NCBI RefSeq assembly: GCF_021018745.1
Contig: NZ_CP063845.1
Location: 1,922,001 to 1,986,000 of the forward strand
DNA length: 64,000 nucleotides
From: Gloeobacter morelensis MG652769
GTDB lineage: Bacteria; Cyanobacteriota; Cyanobacteriia; Gloeobacterales; Gloeobacteraceae
Reading direction: 5' to 3'
A program made the position numbers and the translations under genes. How positions within the stretch are numbered: the first letter of the stretch is position 1; the number at the start of each line of letters is the position of its first letter. Below the pieces are notes generated by a model that was given only the letters and a program-made list of their open reading frames with translations, was not told the DNA's origin and searched no databases. Below, piece by piece: positions 5,906 to 61,859 of this stretch.

Positions 5906-6256
5906 ATGACCCGAACCGCCGCCTATCCCGGCCGCACGCGCCGCAGCGCCACGGCCTCTTTGTTGTGGGGACCTGCTCTGGGATGTGTCCTCGTCGCTGC
6001 TTTGTGCGTGGCTGCCGGCCTGCACCTGTGGCATCTGTGGCAGTTCCAGAGCGGGCAGTACGCACACCTGAGCGCTCTGGAAGCCGCCCTCGCCCACGCC
6101 CAGACCCAGAAGCAGCAGCAGCAGGAAGAACTGGTGCGCCGCTTCGATCCACAGCAACTGCAGCCGCTATTGCGGGAGCGCTACGGCTGGGTGGACCCGC
6201 GCGATCTCATTGTCAAGCTCAAAATCCCGGCCACAGCCCAGGCGCCCAGGCTTTAG
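5906..6256 (+). CDS. FtsB/DivIC-like septum formation initiator family protein
   Basis: A 116-residue protein with a basic N terminus, one membrane helix (about residues 22-46, ALGCVLVAALCVAAGLHLW) and a coiled coil (about 50-85, rich in Q, A, L and E). The ending RERYGWVDPRDLIVKL resembles the 'gyv.pgEiv..l' block of septum formation initiator proteins. FtsB/DivIC proteins bridge the early and late divisome in the periplasm. The similarity is in architecture and the C-terminal block only, so the call is tentative. Its stop overlaps that of the convergent M48 peptidase gene by 4 bp. Confidence 0.5.
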   Translation: MTRTAAYPGRTRRSATASLLWGPALGCVLVAALCVAAGLHLWHLWQFQSGQYAHLSALEAALAHAQTQKQQQQEELVRRFDPQQLQPLLRERYGWVDPRDLIVKLKIPATAQAPRL

Positions 6257-7278
6257 CGCTGCGCCTCGCGCGCCCCGCCCGCCGTGGTGCGCTGCAGTTC
6301 GCGCAGCCAATCGGTGATCTGGCGCGACAGCTGTTGCACTCCCAGGCCCGTCTCACCGATCAGGTGGCGGAACTGGGCTGCGTAAAAATCGACGGCCCGC
6401 TCGAATTCGGCACTCGGAGGCGGCTCCTGGCCGCGGCGCACGTAATTGCCGCCGATAATCCGGTCGAATTCGCCCGATTGGATCCAGCGGGTCAACTCCG
6501 AGACGCGGCGCACGGCGTAGGGGTGGGTGGTGCCCAGTTCACCAAAAAAGCGCAATCCCCGATCGACGTAGTCGTCCCAGGTCTCGTACTGGCTCGCCTG
6601 GTGGATAAAAGCATCGACGTTGAGCCCCTCGACGTTGCCGCCCGCGAGCTTCATCAAGGTGCGGCAGTGGATGCGCGGGTCGCGCACCACCAGCGCGGCG
6701 GCCCGGTCGCAGCTCAGTTCCGAAGCGCGCGACCACTCCTGCAGTACCAGGATGATGGCTTGAATGGGCAGATTGCCCAAAGGCGGCAGGGGCAGGGTGC
6801 TGAGGCTGACGTTGAGCAGCAGGGCGAGCACCGTGCGGTAAAGGACGTGCTCCGAAAGAATATGCCCCACTTCGTGGGCGAGCACCGACTTCAGCTCGTC
6901 CTCTTCGAGGATCGAAGCGAGGCCCGAATTGAGGATGATAATCGGCCGGTCGGCCCCGAAGGCCATCGCGTTGACCTGCGGGGTCTGCAACAGATACAGC
7001 TCGTAGACCGACGGCATGTCGAGCGTGTCGAGGCAGGAGAGGTACGCCTGATGGATTTTCGGCAGCTGGTTCGGCCCGAGCCGGATGCCGTTCCCCAGCA
7101 ACTGCTGTTTGAAGGAGCGCTCCAGGCCGAATTCGAAGAGCTTCTTGACGAGCACGTCGATAAACGGGATCTGCTTGAGGGCGGCGGTGGCGGCGCGATC
7201 GGCCGGGTGCTCGTAGGCTTTTGGGCTGATGCCGGTCAGCCGGTAGGGCGTGGGCGCAGAGCTGTTGCTGCTGGTCAT
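6253..7278 (-). CDS. M48 family zinc metallopeptidase
   Basis: A 341-residue protease starting at MTSSNSSAPTPYRL. It carries the zinc-binding HEVGH motif (SVLAHEVGHILSEHV) and the downstream glutamate ligand in ASELSCDRAAAL, both typical of the Ste24/HtpX family. A hydrophobic stretch between them (VLALLLNVSLSTLPLPPLG) may dip into the membrane. The N-terminal part (KAYEHPADRAATAALKQIP) is the usual start of cyanobacterial M48 proteins. A longer reading frame continues upstream but runs antisense-like through the murF start, so the ATG at 7278 is preferred. Substrate unknown. Confidence 0.88.
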   Translation of the reverse strand: MTSSNSSAPTPYRLTGISPKAYEHPADRAATAALKQIPFIDVLVKKLFEFGLERSFKQQLLGNGIRLGPNQLPKIHQAYLSCLDTLDMPSVYELYLLQTPQVNAMAFGADRPIIILNSGLASILEEDELKSVLAHEVGHILSEHVLYRTVLALLLNVSLSTLPLPPLGNLPIQAIILVLQEWSRASELSCDRAAALVVRDPRIHCRTLMKLAGGNVEGLNVDAFIHQASQYETWDDYVDRGLRFFGELGTTHPYAVRRVSELTRWIQSGEFDRIIGGNYVRRGQEPPPSAEFERAVDFYAAQFRHLIGETGLGVQQLSRQITDWLRELQRTTAGGAREAQR

Positions 7279-7303
7279 GCGGAATGATCGAAATCGATTG
7301 GCT

Positions 7304-8668
7304 CTATTGTGCACGCTCGGACGGTATACCTGCCCGGAACAAATCCTGAAACTCCACCAGAACCCGCTCCAGCCCCACCGCCCGCGAAGCTTTGAACAAG
7401 ATCCGATCCCCCGGCCGCACCCGCTCTGCCAGATATTCAGCCACCGCCCGGTGGCTGGCAAGCTGCACCACCGGAAGATCTCCGGCTCCTGCAAGCAACG
7501 CTTCGGTGTCTTCGCCTGCCTCCAGAACCACCAGTTCGTCGAGGGCCAAGCGGCGGCAGTGCTCGCCCAGGCTGCGGTGCAGATCTCGGCTGAATTCGCC
7601 CAATTCGCGCATCTGACCAAGAACTGCGATCCGGCGGCGGCCGGGTAGGCCCTCGAACCAGGCGAGGGCGGCGCGGGCCGATTCGGGGGCGCTGTTGTAG
7701 GTTTCGTCAATCAGCTGCACGTCGCCTTCGAGGGCGATCACCAAGCTGCGCCCGGTAGGAAGATGAAGGTCTTGGAGGCGCTCGCGCACCTGGAGCAGAT
7801 CGAGACCAAGATGTCGGGCGACCGCCAGGGCGGCCAGGAAGTTGAGGTGGTTATGGCGGCCCGGCAAGGGTGGGATAAAGGCGATCCCATCGACGTGCAG
7901 GTGCACGCCGTCGAAGCTGCCCATAACATCCCCGGCATCAAGACCATAGGTGAGCACCGGCCCCGCCCAGCGGCGGCGGGCGGTGGAAAGCAGCCGTTCG
8001 TCTTCGCCATTGAGAATCGCAGCCCCGCTAGCAGACATCCCGGCCAGCAGTTCGCACTTGGCATCGGCGATGGCGGCGTGGGAACCGAGCCGTCCGATGT
8101 GGGCGCTGCCGACGTTGGTGATCACCCCAACACTCGGGGCAGCACAGCGGGCGAGGCGAGCAATCTCCCCCGGGCCGCGCATGCCCATCTCGACCACGCA
8201 ATAGCGATGGGCGTCCGTCAGCTGTAACAGCAGCTTCGGCACGCCCACGTCGTTGTTTTCGTTGCCCGGCGGGGCGAGCACCGGCCCGGCAGTGGCGAGC
8301 ACGGCGCGAATCAGTTCGCGGGTGGTCGTTTTGCCGGCCGAACCGGTGACTGCCACCACCGGCAACTTGAAGCGATCCCGCCACCAGCGCGCCAGCGCCT
8401 GGTAAGCTTCCAGGGTGTCGGCCACCCGCAGATGAGGGGCGGCTACCGGCCGATCGGCAATCACCAGGGCCGCTCCCCCGGCCACCGCCTGCAGTGCATA
8501 GTCGTGGCCGTCGAAGCGTTCGCCCCGCAGCGCCACAAATAGCGATCCGGGTGTGAGGGTGCGCGTGTCGGTGGTGACGCCCTGCACCAACGCCGGGAGC
8601 ACTCCTTCCACCGCGGCACCCAGGAGGATTTGAAGTGTCTGTGTGTCGATTTTAAACATAGGGATCAC
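7304..8668 (-). CDS. murF: UDP-N-acetylmuramoyl-tripeptide--D-alanyl-D-alanine ligase MurF
   Basis: MurF adds D-Ala-D-Ala to the UDP-MurNAc-tripeptide, the last cytoplasmic step of peptidoglycan precursor synthesis. Seen: an N-terminal Mur domain (LFVALRGERFDGHDYAL), the ATP-binding loop (VTGSAGKTTTRELI, about residues 108-121), the central ligase motif with conserved NEN (PPGNENNDVGVP), and the C-terminal domain (DETYNSAPESARAAL). The first codon is GTG at 8668, overlapping the stop of the upstream J-domain gene by one base; an ATG at 8659 is an equally possible start. 454 aa is normal. Confidence 0.95.
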   Translation of the reverse strand: MIPMFKIDTQTLQILLGAAVEGVLPALVQGVTTDTRTLTPGSLFVALRGERFDGHDYALQAVAGGAALVIADRPVAAPHLRVADTLEAYQALARWWRDRFKLPVVAVTGSAGKTTTRELIRAVLATAGPVLAPPGNENNDVGVPKLLLQLTDAHRYCVVEMGMRGPGEIARLARCAAPSVGVITNVGSAHIGRLGSHAAIADAKCELLAGMSASGAAILNGEDERLLSTARRRWAGPVLTYGLDAGDVMGSFDGVHLHVDGIAFIPPLPGRHNHLNFLAALAVARHLGLDLLQVRERLQDLHLPTGRSLVIALEGDVQLIDETYNSAPESARAALAWFEGLPGRRRIAVLGQMRELGEFSRDLHRSLGEHCRRLALDELVVLEAGEDTEALLAGAGDLPVVQLASHRAVAEYLAERVRPGDRILFKASRAVGLERVLVEFQDLFRAGIPSERAQ

Positions 8669-53252: not shown

Positions 53253-53350
53253 GCATTTACGATGATACCGCCGGGAGCAAGATCGTCAGGACTTACCAGA
53301 GGTCGCTCCACTGTTGTTGCTGAGTGGTCTACCCCCGCACATTCGTTTGC

Positions 53351-54493
53351 TCACTCTGGAACAGCACTATCCGTGGAAAGGGTACTGCTGGTGACGTCTC
53401 CTCCGATAGCGATAGCACCGTCCCCGCTTGCAATGACCACCTTTTGCGCGTAGACGGCGTACAACCCGGTGTATCGGGGATCAATTTTCTGATAGGTCTC
53501 GCCGAAAGCTGAAATCGATTGCAGGAAAGTGCCGGTCCCGGCGAGATCGAGGCGGCCCTCCATCAGCTTTGACAAGCCAAATACCGCTTGGGGAAAACGG
53601 GGCACCATTTCATCGAAGTCGGTGACGACAGCTCCCTGATACTTTTCTCGAACGTAAAATTCCTCTAACCAGGCACAGGAACTCTCTAATCCTCGGCGTG
53701 AAGCGGGATCGAACGTCGCAAAGGTGACGTACTGACTTCGCTGCCCTTCAAACTCGCCTAAAAACGAAACCGCCACACTTACCTCGTAACCCAGAATACC
53801 TCGTCGTGGACGAGGGAGCTGTTCGACACCCTCGACGTGCAGATATAGCAAGGGGATGTCCCGCCTGTTGCCGAAGATGGTGGCCAACTCTTCCGAGACA
53901 TAGCGCATCTCCCCTTCAAGATTGACTGGGGTGGCCCCACGGGTTGCGATACATCTTTTTAGGGAACCGTAGAAGCGGCGTGGCACCAACACAGGGAAAC
54001 CCTCGTGGCAGACACCACTCGAAGAAGCTGTCATAAAGTAATGCGGTTCCTCGTCGATTTTCCTCGGGCGAAGACGCAACGCCCCTACCCCTCCTTCGAG
54101 CATGTTGGCCTTGCCGTAGGGGTCGAAGTATGTGCTCCCGTCGGGCGCTACCTGTAGGTTTTGCAAAGCATTCTCCCGGTATGATCTTGCGCCAGGGGAG
54201 TGGAACTTGCCGGGAGATACTGGGAACCACTCGAACAGGTGGAAATGTTCGAGCCTTACGCGCCTCGTGTCGTGTAGACGCTCCGCGAAGAAATAACCCC
54301 ATGCCTCTTGATTGCTGGAAACCGTCAGAAGTCGGTCTTCTGGACGGTTTGAGCGGCCTGCAAAAGGAAGGCTCACCAGGTCCGCCAAGCGCTCTATCAG
54401 GCCGCCTAGCGAGTAAGTTGATTGGAGAACCCGTTTTGGTCGCTGCTTCGGTCCCCTGACCGATTCGCCCTGCCGATGGCCGAAAAGCTCCAT
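53351..54493 (-). CDS. Beta-tag protein of the NTPase conflict locus (unknown function)
   Basis: A 380-residue protein starting MELFGHRQGESVRGPKQRP. It has no recognised domain, signal peptide or membrane helix; the middle is beta-rich (GILGYEVSVAVSFLGEFEGQ, SQYVTFATFDPASRRGLESS). Its last 30 residues (VVIASGDGAIAIGGDVTSST, then LSTDS) resemble the C terminus of the neighbouring 149-aa protein and the tag inside the NTPase. That points to a common binding or scaffold element. It is transcribed away from the NTPase gene. Its function is not known; it may be the effector or a regulator. Confidence 0.55.
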   Translation of the reverse strand: MELFGHRQGESVRGPKQRPKRVLQSTYSLGGLIERLADLVSLPFAGRSNRPEDRLLTVSSNQEAWGYFFAERLHDTRRVRLEHFHLFEWFPVSPGKFHSPGARSYRENALQNLQVAPDGSTYFDPYGKANMLEGGVGALRLRPRKIDEEPHYFMTASSSGVCHEGFPVLVPRRFYGSLKRCIATRGATPVNLEGEMRYVSEELATIFGNRRDIPLLYLHVEGVEQLPRPRRGILGYEVSVAVSFLGEFEGQRSQYVTFATFDPASRRGLESSCAWLEEFYVREKYQGAVVTDFDEMVPRFPQAVFGLSKLMEGRLDLAGTGTFLQSISAFGETYQKIDPRYTGLYAVYAQKVVIASGDGAIAIGGDVTSSTLSTDSAVPE

Positions 54494-54572
54494 TATCCGT
54501 GTCTCTCTGAGCAAATATGATAAACATACTGCGCCCACGCTCGGGCTGCGACCCAAGCCCACTGGCCATTTG

Positions 54573-55022
54573 TCATTTCTCCATCCAGTTGTGGCTGCCG
54601 GTGATGAATGTGCTGCTCGAAACGCTCCCGCCGACGGCAATGCTGCCTGCCCCACTAGCGGCCACGTTTACCCCAACAGCTCCGGCCCCCTCCAGCATCT
54701 GAGCGATCTGTTGGGCTAGAGCCTGATCCTCGCCCAAGATTTTGCTCACCTGCAACTCCAAAAAGTCCTCGGCGGCCTTCACTCCAGGAAAGGCAGCGGC
54801 TTCTTGGGCAGCGGCTGAAGCGACTGCCTTAGCTTCCACCTTGGGTGCCAGTTTGGCCCACAGCGTTTTGGCTAAGCTCCAAGCATCAGAGCCCATGGCT
54901 TTGCCGGCAGCTTCGGCAGCTTGCTTGGTGGCTTCCTTAGCCAACGACAGCAGGTGCGGCAGGAACGGGGTCAGGAAGACAGTGAGATCCTTGGATAGAG
55001 CGTCGATGGCTGTGGGATCCAT
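54573..55022 (-). CDS. Beta-tag adaptor-like protein
   Basis: A 149-residue protein starting MDPTAIDALSKDLTVFLTPF, with GAGGAG upstream of the ATG. Residues 1-115 are helical and alanine-rich (LLSLAKEATKQAAEAAGKAM, DAWSLAKTLWAKLAPKVEAK). The end GAGAVGVNVAASGAGSIAVG, then GSVSSSTFITGS, is a short beta tag of the G-x-I-A-x-G-G-x-V-x-S-S kind. Small proteins of this build are common beside cyanobacterial STAND NTPases. It begins 422 bp from the divergent DUF4062-NTPase gene. An adaptor role is inferred. Confidence 0.6.
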   Translation of the reverse strand: MDPTAIDALSKDLTVFLTPFLPHLLSLAKEATKQAAEAAGKAMGSDAWSLAKTLWAKLAPKVEAKAVASAAAQEAAAFPGVKAAEDFLELQVSKILGEDQALAQQIAQMLEGAGAVGVNVAASGAGSIAVGGSVSSSTFITGSHNWMEK

Positions 55023-55085
55023 ATGGGACTCCTCGTGAGTAAAATCTGCGGCCATTATTTAACGAGTAGCGAGCTGTGAGCAAGT

Positions 55086-55445
55086 TTATGCAGTAATCCC
55101 CTTTGTTGCCGTCCAGCACCGAGCCAGACCATAACAGTTTTCTCGCCCGTCAACTCCAGCGAGAACCTGCACAGTACCATCCGAACACTGGTGAGATTTC
55201 TTCTTAGTCTTCACCCCCAAATAACTTGGCTTAACCTGTTTTCTGAGGCTTCCTTGCCACTCCTGGTCAAACGTGCCGTTAGGCCACTTTCGGTCTATTT
55301 GCCGTTCTGCCGCCAATCCCGGTGTGTAGAATAGCAGCACAGCAAAGGCAGCTTGACCTGCTTGGTAGGGATCCCAAGCTACTCTGAGTTCACTTCCGAC
55401 ATAGTCGCGGATATAGAATCTTAGAAGCACTGTGTCGCTTCCCAT
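55086..55445 (-). CDS. Doubtful small reading frame
   Basis: 119 residues, MGSDTVLLRFYIRDYVGSEL..., in the space between the two divergent tag genes. It overlaps the start of the DUF4062 gene on the other strand by 2-14 bp. No family or clear ribosome site is seen, and the composition is only weakly protein-like. If it is not a gene, this 420-bp stretch is a promoter region. Confidence 0.25.
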   Translation of the reverse strand: MGSDTVLLRFYIRDYVGSELRVAWDPYQAGQAAFAVLLFYTPGLAAERQIDRKWPNGTFDQEWQGSLRKQVKPSYLGVKTKKKSHQCSDGTVQVLAGVDGRENCYGLARCWTATKGITA

Positions 55446-55962
55446 GCCCTCCTTTCACGTCCGTGTTTTTGTCAGCTCCACCTGGCTAGACCTGCAGCCG
55501 GAACGTCAGGCTATCGAGCAAACCTTGCAACGCTTTCACGAAACGAAGTTCAACGGCATGGAGCATTTCGGCAGCCGAGACGAGACCACCCGCGCGGCTT
55601 CCCTTAGCGAGGTGGACAAGAGCGATTTGTATGTCGGAGTCATAGGAAGTCGTTACGGGTCAGGCATTACTGAGGCTGAGTATCGGCGAGCACGAGAGCG
55701 GAGACTGCCCTGCTTTATCTACTGCAAAGAGGACTCTGCAGTTGCCGGTAAGTGGCAAGAGGCGGACCTTGCCAAGGCCGAAAAGCTGACCGCGTTGGTG
55801 AAGGAATTGCGCTCTAACCACACCATCACCACGTTCACACAGCCCGATGAGCTAGCGGTAAGTTTAGCGGTAGACCTGCACCGCTGGCTGTTCGAAGAGT
55901 ACCTTGCTCCCCGGTTACAGATAGCAAGTGAGAGAGGGGATATCCAGACCTTGACGGGGTGA
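55432..55962 (+). pseudogene. DUF4062 domain: N-terminal fragment of the split NTPase gene
   Basis: About 170 residues up to the IS. VRVFVSSTWLDLQPERQAIE, SEVDKSDLYVGVIGSRYGSG and EYRRARERRLPCFIYC are the DUF4062 hallmarks, a TIR-like domain often found at the N terminus of STAND NTPases in conflict systems. Start is GTG 55432 or ATG 55444. The IS begins at 55951 directly after the duplicated ATCCAGACC, and the frame stops in the IS end. Removing IS and one repeat continues the frame into LRELGRKVLNMDDLMGALGK at 57235. Confidence 0.88.
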
Positions 55963-57225
55963 CAGATAGCCTAAGAAGTGGACTGCAAGAGCATCACAGC
56001 CCGCTGACCCTCGCGATATCGTTGCCGCCATTTCTTACGCATGTCCATCAATTGCTCTACCAGTGACTGGCAGCTCGCCATCCCTTCGAGCCACACTTCA
56101 CTGTGCAACCCGGCTGCAAACGTGCTGCGACGTCTAATACTTCTACCTCGCTCCGACACCCGCGACACGTACTTTTCTACTCCTTGAGCCTTCAGGCGTT
56201 GTCCACGCAACACCGACACACTCATCGCCACGGCAAGCACCAATAACAGTCGCTTGAAGCGCCGTGGCTCCACCCGCAACTTCTCCAGATTGTAACCGCC
56301 GCTTTTGCAATCTCGAAACATCTCCTCGATGCCCCAGCGACAACGGTACCAGGCAATAGCCTCTTGCGGTGTTGCCAGGTTAGTCAACAGCCACCACGGT
56401 TCGTGGTACGGCTTTCTACTGCCAGGTTGGAATCCGAGTTTACCAACGATGTTCACCGGCCCGAATCGCTTCTTCTTGACCAGAGTCACCCCTTTGTACC
56501 AAAGAGTTTGTCCAGGTTCAAGATGGATATTCGCCAGGCATCGCCAGGGTGCTTCCTCGGAGTACCGCAACCACTCGCTTTGCTTCAACCGCAGACAGTA
56601 AGCGACGTTTTCCGCCTGGAGCCACCGGGCGAAATCGACAGAACCGAACTCGCGGTCCCCGAGGACCACAATCGATTTGGAGCAGAAAAATCGGAAAACA
56701 GGCCGAAGCACACTTCTGCGCTCAGCCAAACTGGAATTGCCGTCATGGTTCAGTAGCCTCCAGTAAATGGGGATGGCGCGTTTTTGCCAGATAAGAGCAA
56801 CCATCAGCAGATTGTACTTGTACCAGTTGGTGCGGTCGATAGCAAGGATAAGGCGATGAGGATTATCGGCAAAGCGTTGGATAATCAGGGCAAGCAAGGG
56901 CAGCCAGAGGTGCCAGATGTTGAGTTTGGGAAGCAGCAGAAAGCGTTGGATGGCTTTGCGCCTGCTGTCGGTCTTGATCGTCAGGGGAAGCGCCTCGGCC
57001 AGTCGTTGGATGCAGAGGTGCTGTTGACGTTGTAGAGTATGGACAAGCAGCTGAAGGAAGATGACCTGGTCGTAGGCAAGTCGCTCTTTGAGCAAGTGTT
57101 GGTAGAATAGAGGCAACATAATTTGGATATGGGGGTTTGCCCACAGTGGCAAGCCCTTCTTCTTTAGGTTACAGGCATCAAAGCAAGACGCTGCAGGCGT
57201 TCCAGCCTTTCTGTCACCCCGTCAA
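55951..57225 (-). mobile_element. IS4-family insertion sequence, type 2, copy A (1275 bp)
   Basis: Terminal repeats TTGACGGGGTGACAGA, flanked by the perfect 9-bp duplication ATCCAGACC (55942-55950 and 57226-57234). It lies in the DUF4062-NTPase gene. The ends differ from those of the type 1 element by three bases only (TTCAAGG versus TTGACGG), so the two belong to one subgroup. Confidence 0.95.
55971..57152 (-). CDS. IS4-family transposase
   Basis: 393 residues (382 if it starts at MLPLFYQHLL). Catalytic parts: LAIDRTNWYKYNLLMVALIW, VVLGDREFGSVDFARWLQ and YRCRWGIEEMFRDCKSGGYN (YREK block). Identical in translation to the protein at 59464-60645. Intact. Confidence 0.93.
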   Translation of the reverse strand: MPLWANPHIQIMLPLFYQHLLKERLAYDQVIFLQLLVHTLQRQQHLCIQRLAEALPLTIKTDSRRKAIQRFLLLPKLNIWHLWLPLLALIIQRFADNPHRLILAIDRTNWYKYNLLMVALIWQKRAIPIYWRLLNHDGNSSLAERRSVLRPVFRFFCSKSIVVLGDREFGSVDFARWLQAENVAYCLRLKQSEWLRYSEEAPWRCLANIHLEPGQTLWYKGVTLVKKKRFGPVNIVGKLGFQPGSRKPYHEPWWLLTNLATPQEAIAWYRCRWGIEEMFRDCKSGGYNLEKLRVEPRRFKRLLLVLAVAMSVSVLRGQRLKAQGVEKYVSRVSERGRSIRRRSTFAAGLHSEVWLEGMASCQSLVEQLMDMRKKWRQRYREGQRAVMLLQSTS

Positions 57226-57234
57226 ATCCAGACC

Positions 57235-59394
57235 TTACGCGAACTTGGCAGGAAAGTCCTCAACATGGACGACCTAATGGGTGCACTGGGGAAGCGAGGT
57301 GTCCACGTCACTGGCGACGTCGTACAGAGCTTGATCGTCACTGGCGAAGGCAATGTAATCAACCACCACCTCAATGGTCTTGACCGGCTACCAACCGACT
57401 ACTCGATCCCCTTCAACAATTTTTTGACCGCCTACCTGGGCAGACCCGGGGAGCCGGTCCCTTTCGGTGGTCGAATAAGCGACATCCAGGAACTCGATCG
57501 CTGGCTTGGCGATCCCAATAGCCCTCCATACCGACTTTTGGCCGCTCCAGCGGGAAGGGGAAAATCAGCCCTTCTGGTGCACTGGAGCACCGATTTGGTG
57601 CCGCGTGAAAATGTGGCGGTCGTGTTGGTCCCGGTGAGCATTCGATATGGTACCAACCGCCCCGAGGTGTTCCTCGCAGCAGCAGTAGCCCGGCTCGCAG
57701 TGCTGCATGGAAGGGAGGTTCCGACTGTAAACGTCTCAACGGAGATGTTGAAAAGCTTGATGGGTGAGTACCTAAAGAAGCCACTTGCAGACGGTAGGCA
57801 ACTGCTTTTCATACTCGATGGGCTGGATGAAGCAGCAGGCTGGGAGGCAGATGCAGGTTTGTTTTCGACCACTCCACCTCAAGGCGTCCGAGTGCTGGTC
57901 TCCGCCCGCCTCTTGGCGGGGGACGACAGAGTCGGGGGATGGTTAAGACGTCTAGGTTGGGATTTACATAGTCTGGCGCGCGGGATAGAACTGTCTCCTT
58001 TGGACGAAGTGGGAGTCAAAGACGTGCTCGTGAGCATGGGAAACCCTCTTTGCGCGCTCGGTGAGCAGGAAGACATCGTTCGGCAACTGCACCGGCTCAG
58101 TGAAGGGGAGCCACTGCTAGTGCGACTGTACGTAGAGGACTTACAAAGGCAGTGTGGGACTTTCACCAACGTGGCTCTGGAGAAACTAGAGAGCACTCCC
58201 CCGGGTCTGCAAGGATATTTCGAGCGCTGGTGGGCTGAACAGAGGAAGCTGTGGGGCGACAAGGTACCGCTAAGAGAACCTAGCGTACAAGCCCTACTCA
58301 ACCTTTTCGCCTGCGCACAAGGCCCGCTCAGGCAAAAGGATATCCTTGCAATAGTTCCACCACAAAGCGGCCTAAACTCTTGGACGTTAGAGGAAGCGCT
58401 AACGCCTCTAAAACGCTTTGTAGTTGGCGACGGGGACAGGCAAGGGTATGTCTTCAGCCACCCGAAATTGGGATTTTATTTTTATGATTTCTTGACGGAA
58501 AACGAACGCCAGGAATGGAACAAAAAGTTTCTGGACTGGGGCCAGCGAACGCTTGAAGAGCTTGAGACTGGTCAACTACAGCCTATAAATGCTCCTGCGT
58601 ATCTGGTGCAATACTACGTCACCCACATCAAACTACGGAATAGCTCCCGAGACAGTTTACCGGAAGAGCTTTATAAACTTTTGACGAGTTCTCAAAATTG
58701 GTTAGAAGCAGTAACTAACAAACTTGGCGCGCCTTTCTTCGTTCAAGAATTGGCCGCTTTATCCGAGCAATTGGGGTCGCTACCAAAAGCACCTCGTATC
58801 CGGATACTTTGTGGATTAGGCATGGCTCGGCAAGTGATCAGCCACAAGGTTGAAATGATTTGCGGCCAAGATCTACACCACTTGATTACCAACGGAAAGG
58901 TGGATGAAGCCATTGGTTATGCTCTACTTGAGGCTACCCCTACCAGGCAATTTTATCGATTGACAGTGATTCGCGATGCCTTTCTTAGGCAAGGTAGTTC
59001 TGCTAACGAAAGTCTTGCTACTCATGCTAAAAAAGTCGCAAACGCTATGCGAGATGTTATACGTCTTATTGAAGAGCCGATTGAGCATATCAACGCTTTG
59101 ATAACACTTGGCCAGTGTCTTGCAGATTTTAGAATGTTAACCGAAGCTTTGCAGATACTCAAGGAAGCATTCGACAGAATTTTATCTAATTTTGATCAAA
59201 CACAACAATCCCAGAATCTATTCAAAGTATTCTCGGTTGTGGCCGAGAATAAAATAGATGAACAAGTAAAATCTTGGTGTGATTCTTTGGCAGATGAATC
59301 TTTGCGCAGCGAATGCAGTTGGCAACTGGCTAGGTCCCTAGCAAGCCTTGGTCCAAGTTACTTAGAAAGAGCAAAGGGTATGGCCGCTATTTGA
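57235..59394 (+). pseudogene. Beta tag and NACHT/STAND NTPase: middle fragment of the split gene
   Basis: About 718 residues between the two IS copies; an ATG at 57265 (MDDLMGALGKRGVHVTG) could start a shorter product of 709 residues. First comes a beta tag (RGVHVTGDVVQSLIVTGEGN). The NTPase follows with Walker A LLAAPAGRGKSALLVHWSTD, Walker B LLFILDGLDEAAGW and sensor-like VRVLVSARLLAGDDRVGGWL, then a winged-helix-like part (LRQKDILAIVPPQSGLNSWT). From about 58480 on the sequence is helical, repeat-like and more AT-rich. The frame ends in the second IS. Such NTPases are switch proteins that oligomerise on sensing a trigger. Confidence 0.88.
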
Positions 59395-60665
59395 CGGGGT
59401 GACAGAAAGGCTGGAACGCCTGCAGCGTCTTGCTTTGATGCCTGTAACCTAAAGAAGAAGGGCTTGCCACTGTGGGCAAACCCCCATATCCAAATTATGT
59501 TGCCTCTATTCTACCAACACTTGCTCAAAGAGCGACTTGCCTACGACCAGGTCATCTTCCTTCAGCTGCTTGTCCATACTCTACAACGTCAACAGCACCT
59601 CTGCATCCAACGACTGGCCGAGGCGCTTCCCCTGACGATCAAGACCGACAGCAGGCGCAAAGCCATCCAACGCTTTCTGCTGCTTCCCAAACTCAACATC
59701 TGGCACCTCTGGCTGCCCTTGCTTGCCCTGATTATCCAACGCTTTGCCGATAATCCTCATCGCCTTATCCTTGCTATCGACCGCACCAACTGGTACAAGT
59801 ACAATCTGCTGATGGTTGCTCTTATCTGGCAAAAACGCGCCATCCCCATTTACTGGAGGCTACTGAACCATGACGGCAATTCCAGTTTGGCTGAGCGCAG
59901 AAGTGTGCTTCGGCCTGTTTTCCGATTTTTCTGCTCCAAATCGATTGTGGTCCTCGGGGACCGCGAGTTCGGTTCTGTCGATTTCGCCCGGTGGCTCCAG
60001 GCGGAAAACGTCGCTTACTGTCTGCGGTTGAAGCAAAGCGAGTGGTTGCGGTACTCCGAGGAAGCACCCTGGCGATGCCTGGCGAATATCCATCTTGAAC
60101 CTGGACAAACTCTTTGGTACAAAGGGGTGACTCTGGTCAAGAAGAAGCGATTCGGGCCGGTGAACATCGTTGGTAAACTCGGATTCCAACCTGGCAGTAG
60201 AAAGCCGTACCACGAACCGTGGTGGCTGTTGACTAACCTGGCAACACCGCAAGAGGCTATTGCCTGGTACCGTTGTCGCTGGGGCATCGAGGAGATGTTT
60301 CGAGATTGCAAAAGCGGCGGTTACAATCTGGAGAAGTTGCGGGTGGAGCCACGGCGCTTCAAGCGACTGTTATTGGTGCTTGCCGTGGCGATGAGTGTGT
60401 CGGTGTTGCGTGGACAACGCCTGAAGGCTCAAGGAGTAGAAAAGTACGTGTCGCGGGTGTCGGAGCGAGGTAGAAGTATTAGACGTCGCAGCACGTTTGC
60501 AGCCGGGTTGCACAGTGAAGTGTGGCTCGAAGGGATGGCGAGCTGCCAGTCACTGGTAGAGCAATTGATGGACATGCGTAAGAAATGGCGGCAACGATAT
60601 CGCGAGGGTCAGCGGGCTGTGATGCTCTTGCAGTCCACTTCTTAGGCTATCTGTCACCCCGTCAA
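59391..60665 (+). mobile_element. IS4-family insertion sequence, type 2, copy B (1275 bp)
   Basis: Same element as 55951-57225 in the opposite orientation, with its own perfect 9-bp duplication GGCCGCTAT (59382-59390 and 60666-60674). The separate duplications show two independent insertions into the same gene. Confidence 0.95.
59464..60645 (+). CDS. IS4-family transposase
   Basis: 393 residues from a TTG at 59464, or 382 from the ATG at 59497. All IS4-family motif residues are intact, and the translation equals that of the copy at 55971-57152. A 9-bp stem with one mismatch (GGGCTTGCC / GGGCAAACCC) covers the first codons, like the hairpin of the type 1 elements. Confidence 0.93.
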   Translation: MPLWANPHIQIMLPLFYQHLLKERLAYDQVIFLQLLVHTLQRQQHLCIQRLAEALPLTIKTDSRRKAIQRFLLLPKLNIWHLWLPLLALIIQRFADNPHRLILAIDRTNWYKYNLLMVALIWQKRAIPIYWRLLNHDGNSSLAERRSVLRPVFRFFCSKSIVVLGDREFGSVDFARWLQAENVAYCLRLKQSEWLRYSEEAPWRCLANIHLEPGQTLWYKGVTLVKKKRFGPVNIVGKLGFQPGSRKPYHEPWWLLTNLATPQEAIAWYRCRWGIEEMFRDCKSGGYNLEKLRVEPRRFKRLLLVLAVAMSVSVLRGQRLKAQGVEKYVSRVSERGRSIRRRSTFAAGLHSEVWLEGMASCQSLVEQLMDMRKKWRQRYREGQRAVMLLQSTS

Positions 60666-60674
60666 GGCCGCTAT

Positions 60675-61593
60675 AAATGGCACTAATCACGAGCGGTGCT
60701 CGGATCTTGAAATCCTTGCTAACGCATGGAGGGAACCACAGGACCAATACTGGAGTTACAATGATACACGCACTTCTGAGATGGATACCATTGCTTTTAT
60801 ACAACAACGAAGTGACTTGATTGCTGCCATTTGTGCCATGGCAAGTACTCTACATAAGGACGCACAATACAGAGCAATTGGAGATAGGTTGTATACGATT
60901 GCTAAAAAGACGATTAATTCTTTTCGAAATGGCGGCGAAATCAACATTTGTACACATGACAATGGGTGTATTCTCCTCGCATTTTCATTCGTTGAAGCGC
61001 AGGAACTTGAACAAGCTATTGAGGTGATAGGTTGTATTCATGAACAAGAAGAACGCTCAAAAGATCTGGCTGATATAGGTCTAGCTATAGCTAGAGCAGG
61101 AGCGCGTGAGCAAGCGATAAACTTGATATCGTCAATTAAAGACAAAGAGGTCTCCAGTCAAGCGTTAAATGATTTTACTTTACTGGATGAACAAGTGCAG
61201 GGCAAAGCGCTCAGAAAAGAGCTACTTCCAGAGCGTGTTCAGGAGGCGTTTAAGTTTATAAAATCTGGTCAGCTTACCGATGCCAAGAAGTGTTATTCTG
61301 CTCAAGCAATGTCTGATCCTTACTACTCAGGTAGTAGGCTTCTTAGTGATCTATGTGTCGAGAATGCAAAGTTTGGAAGAATAGAAAAATCTATTGAGAT
61401 TTTGAGTTGGCCATGCCAGAGTATTGGTGGTTACGTACAAGGCTTGGCTAAACTCGCTCCTCACTTCGAACAAATCGAGCCAGGGTTAGCCTTGGTGGTT
61501 TTCAAGGAAGCTGTTCGCATTGCGCCTTGGGTAAATTCTTCTTCGCGTGAAGTTTGGACTGAATGCCTGAATGCCCTTTCATCAAGCAGCTGA
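60675..61593 (+). pseudogene. Alpha-helical C-terminal fragment of the split NTPase gene
   Basis: About 306 residues, beginning directly after the second target duplication (NGTNHERCSDLEILANAWRE). An ATG at 60781 could start a 270-residue product. The sequence is helical and repeat-like (AFSFVEAQELEQAIEVIGCI, IGLAIARAGAREQAINLISS), typical of the sensor superstructure at the C terminus of STAND proteins. It is AT-rich compared with the NTPase core. With the other two pieces it restores a protein of about 1193 residues. Confidence 0.82.
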
Positions 61594-61646
61594 ATATCAC
61601 ACTTCATTTTAGCAATTTTGCTTATAGACCGCCTTGACTATTATAT

Positions 61647-61859
61647 CTAATCAGTCGAATTTGCTGCCGAGCGACGTTGACCACGCTGCCTTGCCTGAAA
61701 CTGACCCAGCGGGCTTTGAGCGTGTTGCAGCTCCAGCCGATCGAGATGGTGTTGCAACTGCTCGGACCACTGGCGCAATGCATCGAGATTTTCGCGCGCC
61801 TGCTCAAGGTGTTGGTGGTGGGTTTGCAGGTCAACCCTTAAACGTGGTCGATCAGACAT
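61647..61859 (-). CDS. Small coiled-coil protein
   Basis: A 70-residue protein, MSDRPRLRVDLQTHHQHLEQ..., predicted to be one long helix rich in Gln, His, Leu and Arg (ARENLDALRQWSEQLQHHLD). The ATG overlaps the TGA of the gene before it (TGATG), so it is probably translated by reinitiation and its product works with that protein. Family unknown. Confidence 0.55.
   Translation of the reverse strand: MSDRPRLRVDLQTHHQHLEQARENLDALRQWSEQLQHHLDRLELQHAQSPLGQFQARQRGQRRSAANSTD

What the first reader, a model, noticed from the sequence alone, without database searches (positions are those of the whole stretch)
55432..61593. One large DUF4062-tag-NACHT/STAND gene split by two inverted IS copies
Seen: each IS is flanked by a perfect 9-bp duplication (ATCCAGACC; GGCCGCTAT). 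Deleting each IS with one repeat joins 55950 to 57235 and 59390 to 60675 in frame, giving about 1193 codons without a stop. Family knowledge: DUF4062 and NACHT/STAND NTPases act as triggers in bacterial conflict and defence systems. Inference: a defence-like gene was silenced recently by two independent insertions, which suggests selection against its activity (autoimmunity) or loss of need.
Basis: partly seen in the sequence, partly recalled or inferred. Interest (0 to 1): 0.8.

Follow-up and report, generated by a model that had tools for sequence, protein, structure and literature searches.

The report
Tagged immune receptor broken by transposons
In this Gloeobacter-type cyanobacterium, two identical transposons have cut a large immune-receptor gene into three pieces, while two neighbouring genes that look like its partner weapons, joined to it by a shared short protein tag, remain unbroken.

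Summary
Two identical 1,275-bp IS4-family elements in opposite orientation, each with its own perfect 9-bp duplication, interrupt one open frame of 1,197 codons. Intact single-gene DUF4062-NACHT relatives in Rhodocyclaceae span the first junction at 41-45% identity, so the pieces were one gene.

DUF4062 was described in 2026 as a TIR-like NADase. The window domain matches the solved Klebsiella enzyme and keeps its catalytic glutamate.

The new part is the "tag": a 30-residue motif shared with the C-termini of two intact genes next door, a Bell-like protein and an orphan. A motif model finds only these three proteins in this genome. It also finds an untrained hydrolase effector beside the receptor homologue of another Gloeobacter. 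A third Gloeobacter keeps an intact TIR-tag-NLR divergent from the same Bell gene; a fourth has the Bell gene without the NLR.

Best reading: a tag-linked NLR suicide module whose receptor carries its own NADase, disabled by a recent IS burst. The same IS also broke HmaB (Hma defence) and a caspase-STAND gene. Selection for loss is unproven: once one copy had broken the gene, the other says nothing about selection. Novelty: new variant of a known kind.

The parts
53351..54655 (-). Orphan gene, probable tag-coupled effector (start uncertain); relative on a Nostoc plasmid directly after a NACHT gene
53363..53434 (-). C-terminal tag of the orphan gene (IASGDGAIAIGGDVTSSTLSTDS)
   Evidence: E 3.1e-10; in the query set
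54573..55055 (-). Bell-like small helical protein, 160 aa, intact; family beside NLR genes in cyanobacteria
54576..54662 (-). C-terminal tag of the Bell-like protein (SIAVGGSVSSSTFITGSHN)
55432..61593 (+). Receptor gene DUF4062-tag-NACHT-solenoid, interrupted by two IS copies; 1,197 codons when the inserts are left out
55462..55692 (+). DUF4062 TIR-like NADase domain
55678..55680 (+). Codon of Glu83, aligned with catalytic Glu97 of KpSwz
55942..55950 (.). Target duplication ATCCAGACC, left copy
55951..57225 (-). IS4-family element copy 1 (transposase 55971-57152 on the minus strand)
57226..57234 (.). Target duplication ATCCAGACC, right copy
57283..57378 (+). Central tag of the receptor (GVHVTGDVVQSLIVTGEGNVI)
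57544..57567 (+). P-loop (APAGRGKS) of the NACHT/STAND core
59382..59390 (.). Target duplication GGCCGCTAT, left copy
59391..60665 (+). IS4-family element copy 2 (transposase 59464-60645 on the plus strand)
60666..60674 (.). Target duplication GGCCGCTAT, right copy
60675..61593 (+). C-terminal part of the alpha-solenoid (probable sensor)

Best explanation
The locus 53351-61593 is (was) a tag-linked NLR conflict module. The receptor gene encodes, in order, a DUF4062 TIR-like NADase, a 30-residue tag, a NACHT/STAND NTPase and an alpha-solenoid sensor. Two neighbouring genes encode tagged partners: a small helical Bell-like protein and an orphan protein. Proposed mechanism: a trigger binds the solenoid; the NACHT oligomerises; this packs the DUF4062 domains into active NADases and brings the tags together, which template the tags of the partner proteins and switch them on; the infected cell dies or stops growing. 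In this genome the receptor is out of action because two copies of a recently amplified IS4-family element landed in it independently. One cuts between NADase and tag, the other inside the sensor. The partner genes are intact but have lost their switch. Shown: anatomy, insertions, catalytic residue, tag sharing, intact relatives. Inferred: NADase activity, tag templating, cell death, loss of function.
For: Insertions and frame. One ancestral gene: intact DUF4062-NACHT single genes L110, L111, L113 (41-45% identity over receptor residues 10-640); single ORFs carry homologues of both sides of junction 2. NADase family: PDB KpSwz E 8.6e-8 with the Glu97 position kept; DUF4062 domains hydrolyse NAD and defend against phage (PMC13174449); AF2 model pLDDT 74.7 with Foldseek matches to deoxyribosyltransferase, DNPH1 and TIR folds. 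Tags: an independent probe (G001 Bell tail) ranks the Bell, receptor and orphan genes 1-2-3 of 283 window ORFs, scores 75/63/56 against 46 for the next; the tag model finds only these three in the genome, and outside its query set finds the hydrolase effector beside the G003 homologue (8.7e-5) and a hydrolase-TIR effector in G002 (1.9e-5). Same arrangement intact in G002: TIR-tag-NB-ARC-TPR divergent from the Bell gene. 8 of 12 Bell/NLR neighbours in other cyanobacteria share their own tag; so do the orphan's relative and its neighbouring NACHT on a Nostoc plasmid.
Against: No experiment. Pfam NACHT and NPHP3_N matches of the window protein are below their cut-offs; only PADLOC STAND_TPR is strong. 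The tag match between the window's own receptor and Bell protein is modest when taken alone (score 38, p about 0.003-0.005), and in a scan with the receptor tag alone the Bell gene ranks only fifth of 283 ORFs, the receptor itself being first. The Bell-like protein has no clear transmembrane helix and its single-sequence model is unusable (pLDDT 42.5). DUF4062-NACHT relatives without any tag exist, so the tag is not needed for the fused NADase. Amyloid formation was not tested.
Confidence: 0.68

Rival explanations
1. Neutral decay: a recent IS burst happened to hit an expendable gene twice; no selection for silencing was involved.
For: Seven identical copies; the hit gene is accessory and sits in a hot spot with different content in sisters; after either insertion the other is free.
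Against: Two hits in one gene expected at about 0.018 pairs under uniform targeting; three of six hit loci are conflict genes; receptors also broken or missing in two other Gloeobacter genomes.
Confidence: 0.5
2. Selected silencing: receptor activity was harmful (self-toxicity or false alarms), so inactivating insertions were favoured.
For: Same pattern of receptor gone and tagged partner kept in G001; truncated homologue in G003; IS hits in other conflict genes of this genome.
Against: No population data, no cost measured; the second insertion carries no information; G001 may never have had the NLR.
Confidence: 0.35
3. The three pieces are working separate genes: a free DUF4062 NADase (176 aa), a tag-NACHT protein (709 aa from ATG 57265) and a small solenoid protein.
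For: Piece 1 keeps the whole DUF4062 domain; an isolated TEP1 DUF4062 domain is active (PMC13174449); piece 2 has an ATG.
Against: Intact relatives are single genes; piece 3 has lost its first 35 codons before any ATG; copy 1 of the transposase reads against the gene.
Confidence: 0.07
4. Composite transposon: the IS-NACHT-IS block moved as one unit into a DUF4062 gene.
For: Inverted flanking IS copies resemble Tn10-type layouts (my knowledge).
Against: The outer flanks differ and each IS has its own duplication; DUF4062 and NACHT are fused in intact relatives.
Confidence: 0.01
5. The tags are ordinary flexible or beta-rich linkers with a common composition, not a coupling motif.
For: Short, Gly/Ser/Thr/Val-rich; the receptor-Bell score alone is modest.
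Against: Whole-genome search finds only locus members here, plus two untrained effectors elsewhere in the genus; pairs match within loci in other genomes with different tags.
Confidence: 0.2

Closest known systems
Bell/BASS NLR amyloid-signalling pairs (reviewed in PMC7889193; motif models in PMC8086366)
   Same: NLR gene beside a gene for a small helical protein; both share a short motif that ends the small protein; found in cyanobacteria
   Different: Here the motif sits in the middle of the NLR, behind a TIR-like NADase, not at its N-terminus; a second, orphan tagged gene is present; the genus is unicellular (my knowledge), whereas the published cases are mainly filamentous bacteria
Swarozyc (KpSwz) DUF4062 antiphage NADase (PMC13174449, PDB 10wc)
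   Same: DUF4062 domain with the same catalytic Glu position
   Different: KpSwz has a helical stalk and a portal-binding auxiliary domain in a 326-residue chain and no NACHT; here tag, NACHT and solenoid follow
Human TEP1, NPHP3, NWD1, NWD2 DUF4062-NACHT proteins (PMC13174449)
   Same: DUF4062 next to a NACHT-type NTPase
   Different: Bacterial; a tag lies between the two domains; solenoid at the C-terminus
Bacterial NLR-related NACHT proteins, for example bNACHT25 (PMC12169576)
   Same: Central NACHT linking detection to a response
   Different: DUF4062 as N-terminal effector plus a tag for separate partners; not compared by phylogeny here
EAD-coupled conflict systems (PMC7159879)
   Same: A small coupling module shared by core protein and effector; the G003 homologue carries a helical domain on both receptor and hydrolase
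   Different: In this window the coupling module is the beta-type tag only; Pfam did not confirm EAD1 in the relative

Membership tests
DUF4062 TIR-like NADases | Sequence match to the DUF4062 model | tested here: met
   PF13271 68 bits against 24.7, full model 1-82
DUF4062 TIR-like NADases | Catalytic Glu (KpSwz E97) | tested here: met
   Window Glu83 aligns with the mutated E97A position of PDB 10wc (chain index 84); conserved in three relatives
DUF4062 TIR-like NADases | NAD hydrolysis | not testable with these tools
   Needs an enzyme assay
Swarozyc system | Portal-binding auxiliary domain after a helical stalk | tested here: not met
   The KpSwz match ends at residue 151; tag and NACHT follow
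STAND/NACHT (NLR-related) NTPases | P-loop and Walker B-type motif in a STAND-type core | tested here: met
   G.GKSALL and D..DE invariant in the aligned family; PADLOC STAND_TPR E 2.3e-23
STAND/NACHT (NLR-related) NTPases | Pfam NACHT or NPHP3_N above the gathering score | tested here: not met
   14.5 against 26.7 and 17.6 against 24.8 bits; so filed as STAND-type, NACHT subclass not certified
Bell/BASS NLR pairs | Small helical protein with a C-terminal motif beside an NLR carrying the same motif | tested here: met
   the window receptor-Bell score alone is modest
Bell/BASS NLR pairs | Motif at the N-terminus of the NLR | tested here: not met
   Motif is central, after DUF4062; hence 'works like', not a standard member
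Bell/BASS NLR pairs | Published Bell and BASS1-10 profile matches; amyloid formation | not testable with these tools
   Profiles not held; no assay
Bell/BASS NLR pairs | Hydrophobic transmembrane-type helix in the Bell domain | tested here: inconclusive
   No strong hydrophobic 19-mer (best 1.3, in the tail); model unusable
IS4-family insertion sequences | IS4 transposase model, inverted ends, fixed-length duplication | tested here: met
   transpos_IS4_2 209.5 bits against 152; 22-bp ends 91% complementary; 9-bp duplications at all 7 sites

The most novel reading that the evidence does not exclude
A dual-output bacterial NLR: one receptor oligomer fires its own fused TIR-like NADase and, through a centrally placed amyloid-type tag, also recruits two separate effectors (a Bell-like protein and a new orphan effector family). 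In Gloeobacter the receptor is the part that is repeatedly lost while the tagged effectors are kept.
Probability: 0.4. Interest if true: 0.75.

Novelty: new variant of a known kind. Interest (0 to 1): 0.56.

Why it matters
It places the newly described DUF4062 NADases inside tag-coupled NLR systems, and shows a tag in the middle of a receptor that also carries an enzyme. That makes a clear test possible: does one receptor drive two kinds of killing? The Gloeobacter set supplies natural comparisons (intact TIR-tag-NLR plus Bell in one genome, Bell without NLR in another, IS-broken DUF4062-tag-NLR plus Bell here). It also points to an orphan effector family linked to NACHT genes, and to one IS burst hitting three conflict genes in a genome.

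Tried and rejected
Composite transposon origin: rejected by the differing outer flanks. Separate ancestral genes: rejected by intact fusions. The first genome-contig scan with the single core found nothing; the two-sequence alignment then found 12 relatives. Orthologue at the same place in sister genomes: none, the site is a hot spot with other genes. Fold of the Bell-like protein from one sequence: unusable. EAD1 in the G003 homologue: seen by eye on both receptor and hydrolase, not confirmed by Pfam. PDB sequence matches for the STAND core or the orphan gene: none. IS relatives on plasmids: none. Enrichment of IS hits in defence genes was not measured, because the defence fraction of the genome is unknown; only assumed fractions were tried. 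One Pfam call failed on wrong coordinates.

Full report
What is there. The two IS copies are 55951-57225 and 59391-60665, each 1,275 bp and exact reverse complements of each other. Joining the flanks gives one frame of 1,197 codons from GTG 55432 (1,193 from ATG 55444) with a single stop at its end. The element belongs to the IS4 family. The genome holds seven full copies, all 100% identical, all with perfect 9-bp duplications, plus three partial or diverged matches. The nearest element in the sister genome G001 is a 693-bp remnant at 92%. So the copies moved recently, and the two in this gene are separate insertions: the outer flanks of the pair differ, which excludes arrival as one composite transposon, and the matched duplications show no net inversion.

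Where it is. The contig is 4,921,229 bp, which fits Gloeobacter morelensis; G001 (4,659,019 bp) and G003 (4,724,791 bp) fit G. violaceus and G. kilaueensis. The flanking MFS and RND genes are syntenic in G001 and G002, but the genes between them differ in all three genomes, so this is a hot spot for exchanged genes. GC falls from 0.63-0.66 in the flanks to 0.56, 0.51 and 0.43 along the receptor gene, which fits acquired DNA.

One gene. A scan with an alignment of the window core and the G003 homologue found 12 relatives. Three Rhodocyclaceae assemblies (L110, L111, L113) have intact single genes of 2,512, 2,518 and 1,389 aa that begin with DUF4062 and continue into the same STAND core, at 41-45% identity from about residue 10 to 640 or beyond of the joined protein. 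This settles junction 1. For junction 2 the repeats diverge, but cyanobacterial single ORFs of 1,383-1,388 aa carry homologues of both sides in the right order. The N-terminal module of the family changes: DUF4062, TIR (L114), trypsin-like (L116), zinc ribbon (L109), short leader (Ktedonobacteria), and in G003 a helical domain.

The enzyme. DUF4062 was reported in 2026 as a TIR-like NADase family with antiphage activity and in human TEP1 (PMC13174449). The window domain matches KpSwz in the PDB at E 8.6e-8 and TEP1 at 8.7e-4. The residue aligned with catalytic Glu97 is Glu83. In the PDB chain this position is Ala at index 84, which with the 15-C construct corresponds to residue 97 (the offset is my reading). 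The Glu is invariant in the three relatives. An AlphaFold2 model from four sequences (pLDDT 74.7, pTM 0.72) has the alternating strand-helix order, and Foldseek returns deoxyribosyltransferases, DNPH1 and TIR domains, with low TM-scores.

The tag. The three Rhodocyclaceae relatives lack about 60 residues between DUF4062 and the core. In the window this stretch holds GVHVTGDVVQSLIVTGEGNVI; G003 has SVKANGDVTNSVIITGNDKIV at the same place. Two intact genes on the minus strand just upstream end in related motifs: the 160-aa gene 54573-55055 (SIAVGGSVSSSTFITGSHN) and the gene 53351-54655 (AIAIGGDVTSSTLSTDS). Those two tails match each other with score 69, p 2e-4 by shuffling. The receptor tag against the Bell-like tail is weaker (38, p 0.005), but among 14 NLR N-termini the two Gloeobacter receptors rank first and second for that tail. 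As an independent probe, the G001 Bell tail picks the same three genes as 1, 2, 3 out of 283 window ORFs. A model of six tags searched in four whole Gloeobacter genomes finds three hits here, all in this locus, and two convincing hits outside the query set: an alpha/beta-hydrolase in G003 (8.7e-5), 3.4 kb from the receptor homologue, and a hydrolase-TIR protein in G002 (1.9e-5). Both effectors carry the tag between the enzyme and a helical C-terminal domain.

Wider context of the partners. The 160-aa protein has relatives in 14 further genomes of 292 cyanobacteria, typically beside a gene with an early P-loop. In 8 of 12 such pairs the tail of the small protein matches the N-terminus of the neighbour. 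This is the layout published as Bell/BASS NLR pairs (PMC7889193, PMC8086366). The orphan 53351 has no relative in the 292 cyanobacteria searched, but one on a Nostoc plasmid (E 4e-30), directly after a NACHT gene. There the tail VNTDGGNYIESICGNYIEGD matches the NACHT N-terminus INTGGGNYNERIEGDYIQGN (score 66, p 3e-4). So this family too looks like a tag-coupled effector, with a different tag in a different genome.

Natural comparisons. G002 has the Bell orthologue (54% identity) divergent from an intact TIR-tag-NB-ARC-TPR gene, the same arrangement as in the window with a classical TIR in place of DUF4062. G001 has the same region with the Bell gene at 95% nucleotide identity, but 146 bp where G002 has the NLR gene. 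In G003 the receptor homologue ends at an IS3-type element. So receptors are missing or broken by different routes while tagged partners stay. The direction of change in G001 (loss or never gained) is not proven.

Other IS sites. Of the seven copies, two are here. One splits HmaB in an otherwise open HmaABC defence locus. One splits a caspase-nSTAND1-WD40 gene. One splits an FG-GAP protein. Two are not inside a long frame. Three of six loci being conflict genes is striking, but the genome-wide fraction of such genes was not measured; with assumed fractions of 2, 5 and 10% the chance is 0.0002, 0.002 and 0.016.

How it most likely worked, and what is left. Inferred: the solenoid senses, the NACHT oligomerises, DUF4062 domains become active NADases, tags assemble and recruit the two partners. 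One IS leaves a complete DUF4062 domain in a 176-aa product without the oligomerisation part; the other cuts the sensor. I take the receptor to be dead and the partners to be without their switch. Whether loss was favoured (self-toxicity) or merely tolerated cannot be told from one genome.

Judgement. The real interest is the tag-coupled module with a centrally placed tag behind a TIR-like NADase, a new variant of a known kind.

Noticed in passing
L134:6192-10799 (G000:C1 about 3739191-3743798): An identical copy of the same IS splits HmaB, the DNA methylase of an HmaABC defence locus whose HmaA and HmaC frames are open.
   Followed up: partly
L135:7570-12621 (G000:C1 about 3169569-3174620): Another identical copy splits a caspase-nSTAND1-WD40 gene in its WD40 part.
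   Followed up: partly
L136:6512-9172 (G000:C1 about 1112511-1115171): A further copy splits an FG-GAP repeat protein.
   Followed up: partly
window 53273-61683 versus L098 and L099: The stretch between the MFS and RND genes is a hot spot: three Gloeobacter genomes carry three different gene sets there.
   Followed up: partly
L163:3074-6279: Intact TIR-tag-NB-ARC-TPR gene divergent from a Bell-like gene in G002; the NLR is absent beside the same Bell gene in G001 (L165).
   Followed up: yes
L018:1362-2549 and 5984-8026: An alpha/beta-hydrolase and a STAND gene share both a helical coupling domain and the beta-type tag; IS3-type elements lie on both sides of the STAND gene and one cuts its end.
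   Followed up: partly
L164:3503-5407: Effector with alpha/beta-hydrolase, TIR, tag and a helical coupling domain in one 634-aa frame in G002.
   Followed up: partly
L166:82-3446 (Nostoc plasmid pNPM4): NACHT gene followed by a relative of the orphan 53351; both carry a GGNYxExIxGxYIxG-type motif.
   Followed up: partly
L105-L116: Most relatives with a complete 3' end finish in WWP or similar (for example EVGYWWP); the window gene does not, and its C-terminus resembles that of a cyanobacterial TIR-type protein (L019).
   Followed up: no
L112:7965-12958: The Dictyobacter kobayashii relative changes frame near 8198, between leader and P-loop; either a mutation or a sequencing error.
   Followed up: no
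L127:3325-4245 and 6685-7104: A Bell-like gene and a second gene share a C-terminal tag (GGIYVGGNAxFxGDVAG), another two-effector arrangement.
   Followed up: no
window 55951-60665: The two inverted identical IS copies, about 2.15 kb apart, could invert or mobilise the NACHT core as a unit.
   Followed up: no
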